64,000 bases of DNA. Source: Paenibacillus swuensis. Its GTDB lineage: Bacteria > Bacillota > Bacilli > Paenibacillales > DY6. The position numbers were made by a program, and so were the translations under genes. This document shows, piece by piece, positions 21,314-55,090 of the stretch. Position 1 is the first letter of the stretch. Each line of letters opens with the position of its first letter. Under the pieces are notes generated by a model, which did no database searches, was not told where the DNA came from, and saw only the letters and a program-made list of their open reading frames with translations. Location: NCBI RefSeq assembly GCF_001644605.1, contig NZ_CP011388.1, forward strand, positions 2,632,501 to 2,696,500. The letters run 5' to 3'.

Positions 21314-22264
21314 TTGAACGACAAGATACGCATTTTTTCCGGTTCCTCAAACCCGGAGTTGGTCGACCGCATCTGTAAGGAGCTGGGCCAACCCGTCGGC
21401 AGAATCAAGCTTTCCCGGTTCAAGAGCGGAGAGATTTATGTCCACTACGAAGAATCCATTCGGAATTGCGACGTGTTCCTGGTGCAATCGTTCTCGCACC
21501 CCATTAATGAAGCTCTTGTAGAACTGATGGTTATGATTGATGCGGCTAAGCGGGCATCGGCAAGAACTGTAAATATTGTTGTTCCTTATTACGGATATGC
21601 CAGACAAGAGCGTAAAGCGGCTCCGCGTGAACCGATTTCCGCGAAGATGGTGGCGGATGTGCTGACAACGGTTGGCGCAACCCGTGTAATTACACTGGAT
21701 TTGCACGCTCCTGCTATTCAAGGATTCTTCAACATTCCGGTGGATCACCTGACGGCATTGGATCTGATCAGTGATTACCTGAAAGCGAAGAATATTCCTA
21801 ACCCGATCGTGGTATCTCCGGATGCGGGCCGCGCGGCTACGGCCGAGAAGCTGGCTAACTACCTGGATTCCCCGTTCGCGATTATGATCAAGAAACGCCC
21901 GGCGCATAACGAATCTACAATCACGCATGTTATCGGTGACGTAGAAGGCCAAACGCCGATTATTATCGAAGATTTAATTGATACGGGCACGACGATCGTT
22001 AACGTTGTGGAAGGCTTGAAAGAGCGCGGCGCTAATGATGTATATGTCTGTGCAACTCATCCGGTGTTCTCCGGCCCGGCGCTGCAACGTCTGGATCACC
22101 CGAGCATCAAGGAAGTGGTTGTGACGGATTCAATCGCGTTACCGCGGGACTGCTCCGATCGCTTCAAGGTTATCTCCATCGCTCATTTGTTAGCGGATGC
22201 GATTCAGATTATTTTGCAGGGCGGATCAATCTCCACATTGTTTAAGAACAACGGCGGTTTGTAA
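21314..22264 (+). CDS. prs: Ribose-phosphate pyrophosphokinase (PRPP synthetase)
   Basis: A 316-residue class I PRPP synthetase that makes phosphoribosyl pyrophosphate from ribose-5-phosphate and ATP for nucleotides, histidine, tryptophan and NAD. Visible are SGSSNPELVDRICKELGQ, the catalytic flexible loop YGYARQERKA, the VVSPDAGRAATAEKL region and the PRPP loop IIIEDLIDTGTTIVN at about 216-230. The start is TTG with AGGAGGG 7 bp upstream. In Bacillus prs follows glmU; here it follows the his operon, the largest local consumer of its product, with its own promoter. Confidence 0.94.
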   Translation: MNDKIRIFSGSSNPELVDRICKELGQPVGRIKLSRFKSGEIYVHYEESIRNCDVFLVQSFSHPINEALVELMVMIDAAKRASARTVNIVVPYYGYARQERKAAPREPISAKMVADVLTTVGATRVITLDLHAPAIQGFFNIPVDHLTALDLISDYLKAKNIPNPIVVSPDAGRAATAEKLANYLDSPFAIMIKKRPAHNESTITHVIGDVEGQTPIIIEDLIDTGTTIVNVVEGLKERGANDVYVCATHPVFSGPALQRLDHPSIKEVVVTDSIALPRDCSDRFKVISIAHLLADAIQIILQGGSISTLFKNNGGL

Positions 22265-22649: not shown

Positions 22650-23053
22650 GGTAGTGATAACGCGACAAATGATGCAGCTCCCTACTCGCAAAGACTCAAT
22701 AGCAGCGATAACGCTACAAATGCCGGTGCGCAATCCGCAAATCGACTGCCCCGCCGGTCATAGTAGCGAAATCGCTACAAATGGAGCCGTGCGCGGCTCC
22801 CACAGCCAGAATAGTAGCGATAACGCTACAAATGCCGGTGCGCAATCCGAAAATCGACTGCCCCGCCGGTCATAGTAGCGAAATCGCTACAAAAGGAGCA
22901 GGGCGCGGCTCCCACAGCCAGAATAGTAGCGATAACGCTACAAATGCCGGTGCGCATTCCGAAAATTGACTGCCCCGAAGGAGATAGTAGCGAAATCGCT
23001 ACAAATGGAGCCGTGCGCGGCTCCCAGAGCCAGAATAGTAGCGATAACGCTAC
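22650..23053. repeat. Tandem palindrome array 1 (8 cores, 112 bp period)
   Basis: Eight copies of a palindromic core, type AGTAGCGATAACGCTAC or AGTAGCGAAATCGCTAC, begin at 22650 (decayed), 22701, 22762, 22813, 22874, 22925, 22986 and 23037. Core-to-core distances are 51, 61, 51, 61, 51, 61, 51. The whole 112 bp unit repeats nearly exactly three times from 22699. The 51 bp interval carries its own inverted repeat GGAGCC...GGCTCC. Short open frames across it reflect the repeat and are not called as genes. Confidence 0.93.
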
Positions 23054-23220: not shown

Positions 23221-24339
23221 ATGATGAATAAACAAAAATTATTAATTCTAGTAACAAGCGTAGGCTTGCTTAGCACAACGGCTGTGGTGGGTGCGAACGG
23301 GCTTTTGGAAAAGGTGAAAGGGATCGTAAGGAATGATATCGTCGTATCTATAGACGGAACAGACACTGCGCTCCATCCTGTATACATTAACGGCAAAGCT
23401 TATCTCCCGGCTCGCGACACAGCTGCGGCTTTAGGCTACGGCTTGAGCTACAACATCAAAGATAAAGAAATTCAGATTCAAGGCAACGGCGACGGCCAAG
23501 AGGAGGCGGCCTTGATGCAGACGCAAGGGGTAATCGCAAGCGTAACACCGATTGACCAATACGTGCGCATCGAGGTTCTCGGTCACGGACCGAACAGTTG
23601 GATCATGCTTAATGTGGACAAGGAGACGGTACTGACTTCTCGCAGCGGTCAAGCGGTTACAGCCAAGGACCTCAAAGCAGGTATGCATGTATACGCGAAA
23701 TACGGCCCTGTAATGGCCATGAGCTACCCGGGACAATCCCATGCCGTAAGTGTTGAGGTTATGGAAGAACGCCTGATTAAAGAGCAAGCAATCTTTACGG
23801 TGAAGAAAGGCGATGACGGTTGGCAAATTCAGTTCGGCGAACTCAAGGACGGGGTCGAAGTGCCTAGCCTGACGTTGAATGCGGGGAAAGAAACAATGCT
23901 CATCTCGGCGGAAGGGCAACCGGTCGAGTGGTCGCAGCTGAAGCCGGGCACGAAAGTCCGCGCCTACTACGGTCCGATCATGACTAAGAGCATTCCGCCG
24001 CAAAGCCCGGCACACGTCATTGTGGTGTTGGAAGAACAATTGGATGCCGCAAGCGTGAAAGAGTACAGAGACCTGGGATGGAAGCACGTGCCGGATGCGG
24101 AGAAGAAGCACCTGATTACCAAGAAAGAGGAAGCGCAAGTTAGCATCTTTCCTGCCAAAGGCGCTGGTATCATGACTTATACGGAACAGCAGAAGAAGCT
24201 TTTAGCTGAAATTGTGGCGAAGAACGGCAATCTGGTATCTGTAAATTACACAACGGATCAGGATGCTCTGCTCGGACCGTTAATGGTTGTGTTCGACGCC
24301 GAAACGAAGGAACATATCGGATTTTTCGTAAGAAAATAA
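23221..24339 (+). CDS. Secreted stalk-domain (copper amine oxidase N-terminal-like) protein
   Basis: A 372-residue protein with an N-terminal signal or anchor segment (LLILVTSVGLLSTTAVVGA). A copper-amine-oxidase N-terminal-like (stalk) domain follows at about 37-95 (PVYINGKAYLPARDTAAALG). Two internally similar halves follow, each with a VTAKDLKAGMHVYAKYGPVM or VEWSQLKPGTKVRAYYGPIM segment and a closing valine-rich strand, suggesting an internal duplication at about 100-185 and 185-275. The extreme C terminus is a separate small domain. Stalk domains are common in secreted Paenibacillus proteins and do not imply copper or oxidase activity. Two adjacent ATG codons share the AAGGGAG site. It is a lone gene between palindrome array 1 and a terminator; its function is unknown. 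Confidence 0.8.
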   Translation: MMNKQKLLILVTSVGLLSTTAVVGANGLLEKVKGIVRNDIVVSIDGTDTALHPVYINGKAYLPARDTAAALGYGLSYNIKDKEIQIQGNGDGQEEAALMQTQGVIASVTPIDQYVRIEVLGHGPNSWIMLNVDKETVLTSRSGQAVTAKDLKAGMHVYAKYGPVMAMSYPGQSHAVSVEVMEERLIKEQAIFTVKKGDDGWQIQFGELKDGVEVPSLTLNAGKETMLISAEGQPVEWSQLKPGTKVRAYYGPIMTKSIPPQSPAHVIVVLEEQLDAASVKEYRDLGWKHVPDAEKKHLITKKEEAQVSIFPAKGAGIMTYTEQQKKLLAEIVAKNGNLVSVNYTTDQDALLGPLMVVFDAETKEHIGFFVRK

Positions 24340-42382: not shown

Positions 42383-43564
42383 ATGAATAAGAAGAGTGTT
42401 CGTGATGTAGAAGTTAACGGCAAAAAGGTGTTCGTTCGCGTGGATTTCAACGTTCCGATGGAGAATGGCCAGATTACGGATGACACGCGTATTCGTGAAA
42501 CATTGCCGACCATTAAGTTTCTGATTGAAGGCGGAGCCAAGGTTATTCTGGCGAGCCATATGGGACGCCCTAAAGGCGAAGTTGTTGAAGAGCTGCGCTT
42601 GAACAAAGCTGCGGAGCGTTTGTCCGAGCTATTGGGTAAGCCGGTAGCTAAGGCTGACGAAGCGGTTGGCGAAGCGGTAGAAGCCGCGGTGGCCAAGCTG
42701 GGTAACGGCGACGTGCTATTGCTGGAGAATGTACGTTTCTATGCGGGCGAAGAGAAGAATGATCCGGAATTGGCGAAGCAATTCGCGGCGCTTGCGGATC
42801 TGTTCGTAAACGACGCGTTCGGCGCGGCTCATCGTGCTCATGCTTCCACAGCAGGTATTGCCGAGTATATTCCGGCGGTTTCCGGATTGCTGATGGAGAA
42901 AGAGCTCGAAGTGTTGGGTAAAGCGTTGTCGAACCCGGATCGTCCGTTCACAGCCATCGTCGGCGGAGCTAAAGTGAAAGACAAAATCGCGGTAATTGAG
43001 AATTTGATCAATCTGGCGGACAACATCATCATCGGCGGCGGATTGTCTTATACCTTCCTGAAGGCGCAAGGCCATGAAATCGGAAAATCCCTGTTGGATA
43101 ACGAGAAACTGGATCTGGCGCTGAGCTTTATCGAGAAAGCGAAAGCCAAGGGCGTAAACTTCTTGTTGCCGACGGATATCGTCGTTACGGACGATTTCTC
43201 TCCAACAGCCAACACCCAAATCGTTGGCGTGGACGCGATTCCGGCGGACTGGGAAGGCATCGACATCGGGCCTGAGACTCGCGAGCGTTATGCTCAGGTA
43301 ATTAAGGAATCCAAGCTGGTCGTATGGAACGGACCGATGGGCGTGTTCGAAATCGAGCCGTTCTCCCACGGTACACGCGCGGTAGCTCTAGCTTGCGCGG
43401 AAACATCCGCTTACACCGTCATCGGCGGCGGAGACTCTGCGGCAGCAGCTGAGAAGTTCCACCTCGCTGACAAAATGGACCACATGTCCACAGGCGGCGG
43501 CGCTTCTCTGGAGTTCATGGAAGGCAAAGCCTTGCCGGGCGTTGTCGCTTTGAACGATAAGTAG
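42383..43564 (+). CDS. pgk: Phosphoglycerate kinase
   Basis: A 393-residue two-domain enzyme that transfers the acyl phosphate of 1,3-bisphosphoglycerate to ADP. The signature [20 protein letters not shown] is at the N terminus. [26 protein letters not shown] and the C-terminal nucleotide site [12 protein letters not shown] with [14 protein letters not shown] follow. GAAGGAGGAAG lies before the ATG. The operon is then interrupted by 977 bp without an obvious gene before tpiA. Confidence 0.97.
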
Positions 43565-43583: not shown

Positions 43584-44222
43584 GAATAGTAGCGATATCG
43601 CTACTATTCGTCTGGCTTCGCGGGAGTGAGTCACCATTTGCAGCGAATTCGCTACTAAATGGCGGATATTCACCGCAGAAGCCAACCAGACTTACCGATT
43701 AGTAGCGAATCCGCTACTAAACGAGCATGCTGTTGCTCCCTGAAACTCATTTGGTGCGATATCGCTACTATTGCTGAGGCGGTACCGGGGAAAGTAACCT
43801 TACTTGTGAGAATAAGTAGCGGTTTGCTACTTGTTCGAGCGAGGACGCGCGATTTGAGCACCTTAGGTAGTGTTTTGCTATTTAATTCAAGGTTGCACCG
43901 CGGAAAGTAACCAATCCGGCTCAAATTAGTAGCTATTTGCTACTTATTCGAGCGAGTACGCGCGATCTGATCACATTAGGTAGTGTTTCGCTATTAATTT
44001 CAAGGTGGCACCGGGGAAAGTAACCGATCCGGCTCTAATTAGTAGCGATTTGCTACTTATTCGAGCGAGTATGCGTGATCTGAGCACATTAGGTAGTGTT
44101 TCGCTATTTAATCCTAAGTAGCACCGGGGAAAGTAACCAATTTTGGCTTAAATAAGCAGCGATTTACTACTTATTCGAGCGAGTACTCGGGATATGGCCA
44201 CATTAAGTAGTGTTTCGCTACT
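43584..44222. repeat. Tandem palindrome array 2 (12 cores, about 113 bp period)
   Basis: Twelve palindromic cores start at 43588, 43639, 43701, 43752, 43815, 43866, 43928, 43979, 44041, 44092, 44155 and 44206. Distances are 51, 62, 51, 63, 51, 62, 51, 62, 51, 63, 51. The first core is part of a perfect 26 bp palindrome (43584-43609, centre AGTAGCGATATCGCTACT). Later ones drift to AGTAGCGATTTGCTACT and GGTAGTGTTTCGCTATT. Spacers share GGGGAAAGTAACC and TTCGAGCGAGTACGCG motifs. It lies inside the glycolytic operon. Confidence 0.95.
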
Positions 44223-44321: not shown

Positions 44322-44512
44322 TTTAAGGGTTTAAGGTTTTTCTTTGCGACCGTAGCTTTAGGTGTTGGTATCTGAGCGGAGAGTTTACGGACCGCCTTTA
44401 AGATCGTTTTCTCACCGCTTAAACCTAATAAAGAGAAAACGAGATTAACAGCGGTGGAGCCAGATACCAACACTGCGAGCGAAGCGGAGCAAAGAGGCCT
44501 TAGGCTCTTAAA
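44322..44512. repeat. Long imperfect inverted repeat upstream of tpiA
   Basis: Nested arms lie on both sides of a centre near 44420: TTTAAGGGTTTAAGG (44322-44336) with 44498-44512; CTTTGC (44342) with GCAAAG (44489); GTGTTGGTATCTG (44362-44374) with its exact complement at 44461-44473; TCGTTTTCTC (44404-44413) with GAGAAAACGA (44433-44442). It could fold as one long stem 30 bases before the tpiA start, or be a MITE-like element. A 66-codon minus-strand frame inside is not called. Confidence 0.7.
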
Positions 44513-44541: not shown

Positions 44542-45294
44542 TTGCGTAAACCCATCATCGCAGGCAACTGGAAAATGTTCAAAACCATTGCCGAATCCGT
44601 TGCATTTGTTAACGAAGTTAAAGGCAAAGCTGAAGTCTCAGGCGTAGAAAGCGTGCTATGCGCGCCTTACACCAACCTGCCGGCCTTAGTGGAAGCTGTG
44701 AAAGGCACCGAGATCAAAGTCGGCGCACAAAACATGCACTGGGAAGAAAACGGCGCATTCACAGGCGAAATCAGCGGCGTTATGCTGAAAGATCTTGGCG
44801 TACATTACGTCATTCTGGGGCATTCCGAGCGCAGACAGTATTTTGCCGAGACGGATGAGACTGTGAACAAAAAGACCCTGGCCGCATTCAACTACGGCAT
44901 CACGCCGATCGTATGCGTTGGCGAGAAGCTGGAAGAACGCGAAGCAGGTCAAACCAAAGAAGTGTGCCGCGTTCAAACCGAAGGCGCATTGAAAGGCCTT
45001 TCCGCGGAGCAAGCGGCTCAAACCGTGATCGCTTACGAGCCGATCTGGGCAATTGGCACAGGCAAATCCTCCACAGCGGACGACGCGAACGAAGTCATCG
45101 CATACATCCGTGAAGTTGTGAAAAGCCTATACAACGAGCAAACGGCTGAAGCGCTTCGCATTCAATACGGCGGCAGCGTAAAACCGAACAACGTTAGCGA
45201 ATACATGCAACAAAGCGACATCGACGGTGCGCTTGTCGGCGGAGCCAGCCTAGAGCCGGCATCCTACATCGCACTCGTCGAGGGGGCGAAGTAA
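44542..45294 (+). CDS. tpiA: Triosephosphate isomerase
   Basis: A 250-residue TIM barrel interconverting dihydroxyacetone phosphate and glyceraldehyde-3-phosphate. Catalytic residues are visible: Asn-Lys at the N terminus (AGNWKMFK), His in [11 protein letters not shown], Glu in [15 protein letters not shown], and phosphate-site [11 protein letters not shown]. It starts at TTG with AAAGGAAGTG upstream. The stop is 1 bp before the gpmI ATG, so the two are coupled. Transcripts must cross palindrome array 2 and the inverted repeat, unless an unseen promoter lies there. Confidence 0.96.
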
Positions 45295-54054: not shown

Positions 54055-54413
54055 GGGGGCGTTCTTGGATTCGACGGGGATAGTTTGAGCATCGGTTGCG
54101 GGTAGTGGGGACGCGTCCGCTTCATCAACGCTAAAGCCTATTAAATGGCAACCAACGTACAACTTTAGCAGCAGCTTAATAACCTGACTGTTAAGCTTCT
54201 ACCAAGCATCGCCCATGTGCTAGGATAGGGGCTCACTTTAGTGGGATACGCTGTAAGGTCTCCGCCTGGGGTCTTGCAGAAGAAGACAATCAGGCTGACC
54301 CAACGAGTAGCGGGTTACAGCGCGACTCTCGGGTGACATCAAATCTGTGACTACACCCGTAGAAGCCGGTGTGGCGATATTTTCGGACAGGGGTTCGACT
54401 CCCCTCGCCTCCA
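54055..54413 (+). ncRNA. ssrA: Transfer-messenger RNA
   Basis: About 359 nt. The 5' tRNA half starts GGGGGCGTTCTTGGATTCGACGGGG. The 3' half is GACAGGGGTTCGACTCCCC then CGCCTCCA, whose acceptor pairs with GGGGGCG (one G-U). CCA is not encoded. The tag frame starts at GGC 54147 and reads Gly-Asn-Gln-Arg-Thr-Thr-Leu-Ala-Ala-Ala, then TAATAA, giving a tag of AGNQRTTLAAA after the charged Ala. It works with SmpB (upstream) and RNase R. Its 3' end is the source of the repeated sequence tags found downstream. Confidence 0.95.
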
Positions 54414-54417
54414 TACC

Positions 54418-54655
54418 GATTAAATGAAAGAGCACCCGAGAGGGTGCTTTTTTCATTTTCGGTATGGAGGCGAGCAGGGAGGCGAACCCCGGGGGTTTAG
54501 TCCGCGCGCAGGAAGTGGTTAAAGTTGGTGCTGTTGGCGCCAACTGTGAACGGACGAGCACGGCATTGATATCTACCGACAGATGTCGTCATCTTCGAGA
54601 AGGCTTCGTCAGCAAGTTAAATCAGGATTATCGATACTCCCCTCGCCTCCATACC
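54418..54655 (+). repeat. ssrA-tail module 1
   Basis: Begins with the ssrA terminator and the complement of the tmRNA end (GGTATGGAGGCGAG at 54461-54474). It continues with a body containing GTCCGCGCGCAGGAAGTGG, the palindrome TTGGCGCCAA and GAACGGACGAGCACGGCAT. It ends with CTCCCCTCGCCTCCATACC, identical to the last bases of tmRNA and its flank. No convincing gene. 238 bp separate this tag from the genuine one. Confidence 0.85.
54428..54453 (+). terminator. ssrA terminator
   Basis: AGCACCC, loop GAGA, GGGTGCT, then TTTTTT. The surrounding arms (CTCGCCTCCATACCGA and TCGGTATGGAGGCGAG) extend it to a palindrome of about 70 bp reaching into the tmRNA 3' end. Confidence 0.9.
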
Positions 54656-54883
54656 TAAACGAAGAGCACCCTTAGGGGTGCTTTTTTCGTTAGGTATGCG
54701 AGGGGAGGAGAACCCCGTGAGGGTTCAGTCCGCGCGCAGGAAGTGGTTCGAGTTGGCGCTATTGGCGCCAACTTTGAACGGACGAGCACTGCATCGATAT
54801 CTACCGCCAGATGTAGTCATCATCGGGTAAGCTTCGTGAGCAGGTTAGATCAGGATTATCGATACTCCCCTCGCCTCCATACC
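54656..54883 (+). repeat. ssrA-tail module 2
   Basis: Same plan as module 1. A terminator hairpin (GAGCACCC, TTAG, GGGTGCTTTTTT) sits near 54663-54690. The body has CGCGCGCAGGAAGTGG, GTTGGCGCTATTGGCGCCAAC and GAACGGACGAGCACTGCAT, and the module ends in the CTCCCCTCGCCTCCATACC tag (tag spacing 228 bp). Confidence 0.85.
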
Positions 54884-55090
54884 TTTTCAAAAAAGCATCG
54901 ATCCTCTGGATCGATGCTTTTTTGCGTGAATGGAGGCGATCAGGGAGGAGAACCCCAGGGTTCAGTCCCCGCGGACGAAGCGTAGCGAAGGAGCACGGCA
55001 TCGATATCAACCTTTAGGTGTTGTCATCATCGAATAGACTTCGTCAGCAGGTTAAATCAGGATTATCGATACTCCCCTCGCCTCCATAAC
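54884..55090 (+). repeat. ssrA-tail module 3
   Basis: Third copy with a different terminator stem (AAAAAAGCATCGATCC, TCT, GGATCGATGCTTTTTT). The TTGGCGCCAA part is deleted and replaced by GCGGACGAAGCGTAGCGAAG. It ends CTCCCCTCGCCTCCATAAC (tag spacing 207 bp). Confidence 0.8.

What the first reader, a model, noticed from the sequence alone, without database searches (positions are those of the whole stretch)
43584..44222. Twelve-palindrome array with strict 51 / 62-63 bp alternation inside the glycolytic operon
Twelve copies of an AGTAGCGATATCGCTACT-type palindrome lie at distances 51, 62, 51, 63, 51, 62, 51, 62, 51, 63, 51 bp. Sequence between and within cores has drifted (cores change to GGTAGTGTTTCGCTATT), yet the 51 bp step never changes and the other varies by one base. 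Both steps are near whole helical turns (about 5 and 6), so sites would face a similar side of the DNA. This suggests ordered binding of a protein dimer, an architectural element, or regularly spaced RNA hairpins in the pgk-tpiA transcript. I know of no named element with this geometry.
Basis: seen in the sequence. Interest (0 to 1): 0.88.

Follow-up and report, generated by a model that had tools for sequence, protein, structure and literature searches.

The report
Helically phased palindrome arrays
The twelve evenly spaced mirror-image DNA motifs between two sugar-burning genes belong to a previously unnamed family of hundreds of arrays across one order of bacteria, and the whole DNA, spacers included, is patterned every helical turn, as if built to carry rows of an unknown protein on one face of a bent double helix.

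Summary
It is not a one-off. The window holds a second array (22651-23053) and the genome ten in all, with unrelated spacers but the same half-site (TAGTAGCG, sometimes TAGGCGCG), a 4-bp centre, and steps of 51 or about 61 bp. Covariance models then found the same architecture in other families of the order, almost always at 50-52 or 61-62 bp, often over 100 sites per genome. Two spacing-free searches (own genome; G259, 188 sites, control 0) gave the same steps. Half-sites follow TARNNGSR; the variable bases agree within a genome and differ between genomes, as expected for one evolving dimeric DNA-binding protein per species. The spacers carry A/T peaks every ~10.2 bp in phase with the palindromes; the long step has one extra peak. 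This points to DNA bent or wrapped on one face. Arrays sit 3' of genes and rarely in divergent intergenic regions. Arm-pairing and strand-bias tests do not support RNA hairpins. A type II topoisomerase cleavage core is not matched, and no REP transposase is present. The binding protein is unidentified.

The parts
43584..44222 (.). the array: 12 palindromes in 6 pairs (51 bp inside a pair, 62-63 bp between pairs)
43589..43768 (.). first four palindromes (43589, 43640, 43702, 43753; 16 bp, GTAGCG-N4-CGCTAC and the variants GCAGCG, GGTGCG); unrelated spacers
43816..44221 (.). eight palindromes (43816, 43867, 43929, 43980, 44042, 44093, 44156, 44207; 15 bp) in four 113-bp tandem units
22651..23053 (.). 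second array of the same family in the window: eight palindromes (22651, 22702, 22763, 22814, 22875, 22926, 22987, 23038), steps 51/61, spacers unrelated to the first array
42383..43564 (+). pgk, phosphoglycerate kinase (PF00162), gene upstream of the array
44542..45294 (+). tpiA, triosephosphate isomerase (PF00121), gene downstream of the array
21314..22264 (+). ribose-phosphate pyrophosphokinase gene upstream of the second array
23221..24339 (+). gene downstream of the second array (weak DUF3221 and copper amine oxidase N-domain matches)

Best explanation
The array is a DNA-level binding platform. Each palindrome (TARNNGSR-N4-YSCNNYTA with A/T flanks) is the operator of a homodimeric sequence-specific DNA-binding protein, probably of helix-turn-helix type, reading two major grooves one turn apart across an A/T-rich centre. 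Operators recur every 5 or 6 helical turns, so dimers stack on one face. The DNA between them is also patterned, A/T every 10.2 bp and G/C between, so it bends towards the same face; together they form a wrapped or superhelical nucleoprotein fibre. The arrays lie at the 3' ends of genes and avoid divergent promoter regions, so the likely job is architectural: chromosome packaging, anchoring, or absorbing transcription-driven torsion. SHOWN: geometry, phasing, order-wide spread, genome-specific half-sites, location. INFERRED: the protein, its dimeric nature, wrapping, and the physiological role.
For: Ten arrays in the genome with mutual spacer identity at shuffle level (0.31 against 0.32) but the same half-sites and steps of 51 and 60-62. 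Spacing-free searches give only these steps (own genome; G259, gaps of 51n, 275 of 281 single steps below 60 bp exactly 51). Mixed 50/61-type arrays in other families (L166-L169, L176, L187). A/T ladder in spacers only: z 10.3 for 51-bp steps and 5.1 for 61-bp steps, with an extra rung in the long step; positive in 20 of 20 genomes; replicated in 76 of 78 newly fetched arrays. The variable half-site bases agree for 66% of array pairs within a genome and 13% between genomes, 0 of 2000 label shuffles. Half-sites also combine asymmetrically (GTAGCG with GGCGCG; TAGTGGCA with TAATCGCA), as half-site reading by a dimer allows. Context: 42 convergent, 64 codirectional, 6 divergent.
Against: No binding protein is identified; no gene family recurs beside the arrays. 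Some genomes hold two classes of half-site (G110, G026, G050). In other genomes spacers of different arrays are somewhat alike (0.4-0.6), so those arrays are not fully independent. Foreign loci were found with models containing a 51-bp step, which biases against other spacings. In the own genome alone the ladder in the 51-bp spacers is weak (p 0.03; three of ten arrays slightly below zero), though clear in the 61-bp spacers.
Confidence: 0.6

Rival explanations
1. RNA element: the array is transcribed with pgk and forms a row of hairpins that stabilise or process the pgk-tpiA mRNA.
For: Palindromes fold; strong covariation of arms between species; arrays lie 3' of genes; the first set of codirectional arrays showed more G-U than A-C mismatches on the sense strand (36 against 18).
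Against: No covariation inside the genome; whole arrays fix combinations that break the stem; the G-U excess vanished in new arrays (15 against 11 arrays, p 0.56); RNA does not explain steps of whole DNA turns or the 10.2-bp ladder in spacers; no Rfam match; covariation between species is equally expected of a homodimer changing specificity.
Confidence: 0.12
2. Tandem strong DNA gyrase sites, a counterpart of E. coli BIME-2, absorbing positive supercoils at gene ends.
For: The gyrase motif has a ~10-bp phased G/C variation over 130 bp and gyrase acts downstream of transcribed units and in BIME-2 (PMC6379681); periodic G/C preferences of gyrases from three species (PMC12324340); array location.
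Against: The published cleavage core (-4G/+8C, -2A/+6T, +1G/+4C) is not matched at the palindrome centre (1.75 against 1.54 expected of 6) nor elsewhere (maximum 2.54); -4G and -2A are stable across the enzymes compared, while these half-sites change from genome to genome; one gyrase covers about 130 bp, not 51.
Confidence: 0.12
3. Selfish or passive repeats: REP-like or MITE-like palindromes spread by a transposase and multiplied by tandem duplication, with no function of the spacing.
For: Intergenic, tandem, recent duplications inside arrays, partly similar spacers between arrays of some genomes.
Against: No Y1 transposase (RAYT type) in the genome; spacers of the ten own arrays are unrelated, yet spacing, half-site and rung phase are kept, which drift would destroy; exact core not found in viral contigs or plasmids (the plasmid query was the target array only).
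Confidence: 0.08

Closest known systems
REP / BIME elements (E. coli and others)
   Same: Intergenic palindromes in arrays at the 3' side of genes, with alternating spacings.
   Different: REP inter-palindrome motifs are conserved sequences (own knowledge); here spacers are unrelated and only their length and A/T phase are kept; no RAYT in the genome; species-specific half-sites.
Strong DNA gyrase sites (Mu SGS, Topo-Seq motif)
   Same: Phased ~10-bp G/C variation that favours wrapping; location downstream of genes.
   Different: Cleavage core absent; strict palindromic operator every 51 bp.
Plasmid partition sites such as sopC (tandem ~43-bp repeats each with an inverted repeat; own knowledge)
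   Same: Tandem array of palindromic sites for one protein.
   Different: Tens of dispersed chromosomal arrays; step quantised at 5 or 6 turns; binding protein unknown.
Lrp-type wrapped operators and nucleosome-positioning DNA (own knowledge)
   Same: Operators or A/T dinucleotides in helical phase, DNA bent around protein.
   Different: Strict palindrome every 5 turns; hundreds of sites in non-promoter regions.

Membership tests
REP/BIME | Extragenic palindromes at high copy in the genome | tested here: met
   Ten intergenic arrays in the genome; far more sites in relatives
REP/BIME | Mobilising Y1 (RAYT) transposase in the genome | tested here: not met
   PF01797: 0 matches, while it rings in 5 control genomes
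REP/BIME | Conserved inter-palindrome sequence motifs | tested here: not met
   Spacer identity between own arrays 0.31 against 0.32 shuffled
DNA gyrase strong site | ~10-bp phased A/T-G/C variation flanking the site | tested here: met
DNA gyrase strong site | Cleavage core -4G, -2A, +1G and mirror | tested here: not met
   preferences taken from PMC12324340
Structured RNA element | Match to a curated RNA family | tested here: not met
Structured RNA element | Compensatory arm changes within the genome and G-U rather than A-C mismatches on the sense strand | tested here: not met
   no covariation; G-U excess not replicated (15 against 11)
CRISPR array | Identical repeats with unique spacers | tested here: not met
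   Palindromes vary and spacers recur with the 111-113-bp unit
CRISPR array | cas genes nearby | not tested
   no cas search was run
Operator array of a dimeric DNA-binding protein | Symmetric half-sites with constant internal spacing, uniform within a genome | tested here: met
Operator array of a dimeric DNA-binding protein | A protein that binds it | not testable with these tools
   needs pull-down or ChIP
Partition or centromere array | ParB-type binding protein and segregation function | not tested
   only position was noted: dnaA at 1.544 Mb, arrays 0.3-1.8 Mb from it on both arms

The most novel reading that the evidence does not exclude
A bacterial chromatin-like element: one order of bacteria has a dedicated, fast-evolving dimeric protein that wraps chromosomal DNA into regular fibres at gene ends, positioned by arrays whose operators (every 5 or 6 turns) and spacers (A/T every 10.2 bp) are co-designed, much as nucleosome-positioning DNA is.
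Probability: 0.35. Interest if true: 0.92.

Novelty: new variant of a known kind. Interest (0 to 1): 0.8.

Why it matters
If right, bacteria of one order carry up to hundreds of sites of a hidden architectural system whose geometry is set by the helical repeat of DNA. It gives a sequence handle for finding a new nucleoid or supercoiling protein, a natural series of binding sites with changing specificity for studying how a protein and its genome-wide sites evolve together, and a bacterial case of DNA sequence tuned for wrapping over its whole length.

Tried and rejected
The core in exact form was sought in 395 genomes of the order, 84,980 GTDB species, viral contigs and plasmids: only the own genome, plus scattered chance-like pairs elsewhere; covariance models were needed to reach the diverged relatives. 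RNA hairpin reading: tested by covariation and by G-U against A-C mismatches; the first positive result (12 arrays against 1, recounted) did not replicate (15 against 11) and is not used. Gyrase cleavage core: scored at every offset, not matched. RAYT/REP: no Y1 transposase. Flanking genes of 86 proteins: no recurrent family, the most frequent being in 5 of 86. The hit at 424.6 kb of the genome is a terminator-like stem, not an array. The weak hit outside the order (G432, one match) was fetched as L293 but not inspected by eye. Literature: seven searches for this element or its geometry found no description; the library holds open-access papers only. The organism could not be named, because the own genome is left out of the named collections.

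Full report
OBSERVATION. They lie between pgk and tpiA of a gap-pgk-tpiA-gpmI-eno cluster. Tandem Repeats Finder sees the last part as 3.6 copies of a 113-bp unit, so some of the regularity is duplication; the first four sites have unrelated spacers and the same steps.

A GENOME-WIDE FAMILY. The same scan shows a second array in the window at 22651-23053 with period 112 and steps 51/61. A spacing-free search of the 5.01-Mb genome for the core finds nine arrays, at 0.260, 0.680, 0.784, 1.002, 2.538, 2.655, 2.676, 2.869 and 4.772 Mb; a covariance model adds a tenth at 1.208 Mb. Over the first nine arrays the short step is 51 in 32 of 35 cases and the long one 59-63, mostly 61. Spacers of different arrays are no more alike than shuffled sequence (0.31 against 0.32), while half-site identity is 0.91. 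Of these nine arrays, seven begin and end with a 51-bp pair; the 2.538-Mb array, and the 0.680-Mb array with its degenerate first site, are the exceptions. A second half-site, GGYGCG, replaces GTAGCG on one side of sites in five arrays, including the target.

AN ORDER-WIDE CLASS. No relative in the same family is held. Model R1 found arrays in genome G034 of another family of the order: different palindromes (TAGCCGCA-N4-TGCGGCTA, TAGGCGCA-N4-TGCGGCTA and an outlier TAAGGGAC-N4-GTTCGTTA), all with 51-bp steps, two of them adjacent. Model R2 found 30 of 298 genomes of the order, 13 of 49 genera, six families. About 120 loci were fetched. Steps inside arrays: in one pass 49 (3), 50 (24), 51 (677), 52 (42), 53 (1), 60 (5), 61 (30), 62 (7), 63 (1) (which only allows 49-53 and 60-63). 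Without that restriction, strict sites in the second set of loci give 275 steps of 51, 5 of 50 or 52, one of 43, and multiples. In the complete genome G259 a plain pattern search gives 188 sites against 0 for the reversed pattern, and the listed gaps inside clusters are multiples of 51 within a base or two. Mixed 50/61-type arrays occur in other families.

THE OPERATOR. Averaged over 48 arrays the half-site reads, outward from the 4-bp centre, R-S-G-N-N-R-A-T, that is TARNNGSR. The two variable positions agree in 66% of array pairs within a genome and 13% between genomes; no label shuffle of 2000 reached that. Examples: AACTGCA in all eight arrays of G220, AACGGCA in the seven of G252 and most of G259, AAGCGCG in G024. 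Uniformity in a genome with change between genomes is what a trans-acting protein of drifting specificity would leave. Related species share half-sites, so the permutation does not correct for phylogeny.

THE LADDER. A/T content along the unit peaks at the centre and about every 10.2 bp: offsets 0, 10, 20, 30 and 41 in a 51-bp step; 0, 10, 20, 30, 40 and 51 in a 61-bp step, which therefore has one more rung. Using spacer positions only, the in-phase amplitude has z 10.3 (40 arrays) and 5.1 (17 arrays). By genome the contrast is positive in 20 of 20 (p 4e-8) for the short step and 7 of 7 for the long. It replicated in 76 of 78 arrays of the second set. In the own genome the long spacers are clear (8 of 8 arrays, p 2e-4), the short ones weak (p 0.03). 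Steps that are whole turns, and in-phase A/T between them, are properties of double-stranded DNA.

RNA OR DNA. Inside the own genome the arms do not covary. Across species they covary strongly, as both a stem and a homodimer site would. Half-sites that do not pair are fixed through whole arrays, for example TAGTGGCA with TAATCGCA in G167. A sense-strand excess of G-U over A-C mismatches appeared in the first codirectional arrays (36 against 18) but not in the second set (arrays 15 against 11, p 0.56; combined p 0.04). I count this as not supporting RNA.

CONTEXT. With ORF-based gene calls, 42 arrays are between convergent genes, 64 between codirectional and 6 between divergent ones; the median distance to a 3' end is 127 bp and to a 5' end 197 bp. 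Flanking genes share no family. The gene calls are rough, but the deficit of divergent sites is clear.

GYRASE. The phased G/C pattern and the location recall the E. coli gyrase motif and BIME-2 (PMC6379681), and periodic preferences were reported for gyrases of three species (PMC12324340). The cleavage core is not matched at any offset and the species-specific half-sites argue against a conserved enzyme. Gyrase could still use the bent spacers.

MECHANISM. I favour an operator array for a dedicated dimeric protein that stacks on one face and bends or wraps the DNA. The geometry is shown; the protein, wrapping and physiological role are inferred. Finding the protein is the missing step.

LIMITS. 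Foreign loci were found with models that contain a 51-bp step; the spacing-free checks and the free variation to 50, 52 and 61 speak against this being the cause of the regularity. Arrays of one genus are not fully independent (spacer identity 0.4-0.6). The literature search covers open-access papers only.

Noticed in passing
window 44346-44490: Between the array and tpiA lies a long stem-loop (13-bp perfect outer repeat GTGTTGGTATCTG/CAGATACCAACAC around a second repeat); RNA fold -59.8 kcal/mol, z -6.0 against shuffles; single copy in the genome, no Rfam match. Possibly a leader element of tpiA.
   Followed up: partly
window 54398-54884: A 228-bp unit repeated 2.1 times directly after the tmRNA gene (54055-54416), each unit with a terminator-like hairpin.
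   Followed up: no
L114 1878-2664 (genome G034): Two adjacent 51-bp arrays with different palindromes; the first (TAAGGGAC-N4-GTTCGTTA) does not fit TARNNGSR and its right half resembles a LexA half-site (CGAAC).
   Followed up: partly
L168 1818-2291 (genome G167): Array in which two palindrome types (TAATCGCA and TAGTGGCA) alternate with the 51/61 steps, while array L167 of the same genome uses hybrids of the two half-sites.
   Followed up: partly
L176 1910-2947 (genome G218): Array of over 20 sites mixing steps of 49-50 and 61-62 in a roughly 210-bp higher-order repeat.
   Followed up: partly
Genome-contig hits L073 and L080: Unrelated bacteria (a Verrucomicrobiales MAG and an unnamed MAG) hold tandem TAGCG-N4-CGCTA pairs about 96-105 bp apart, probably other repeat families.
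   Followed up: no
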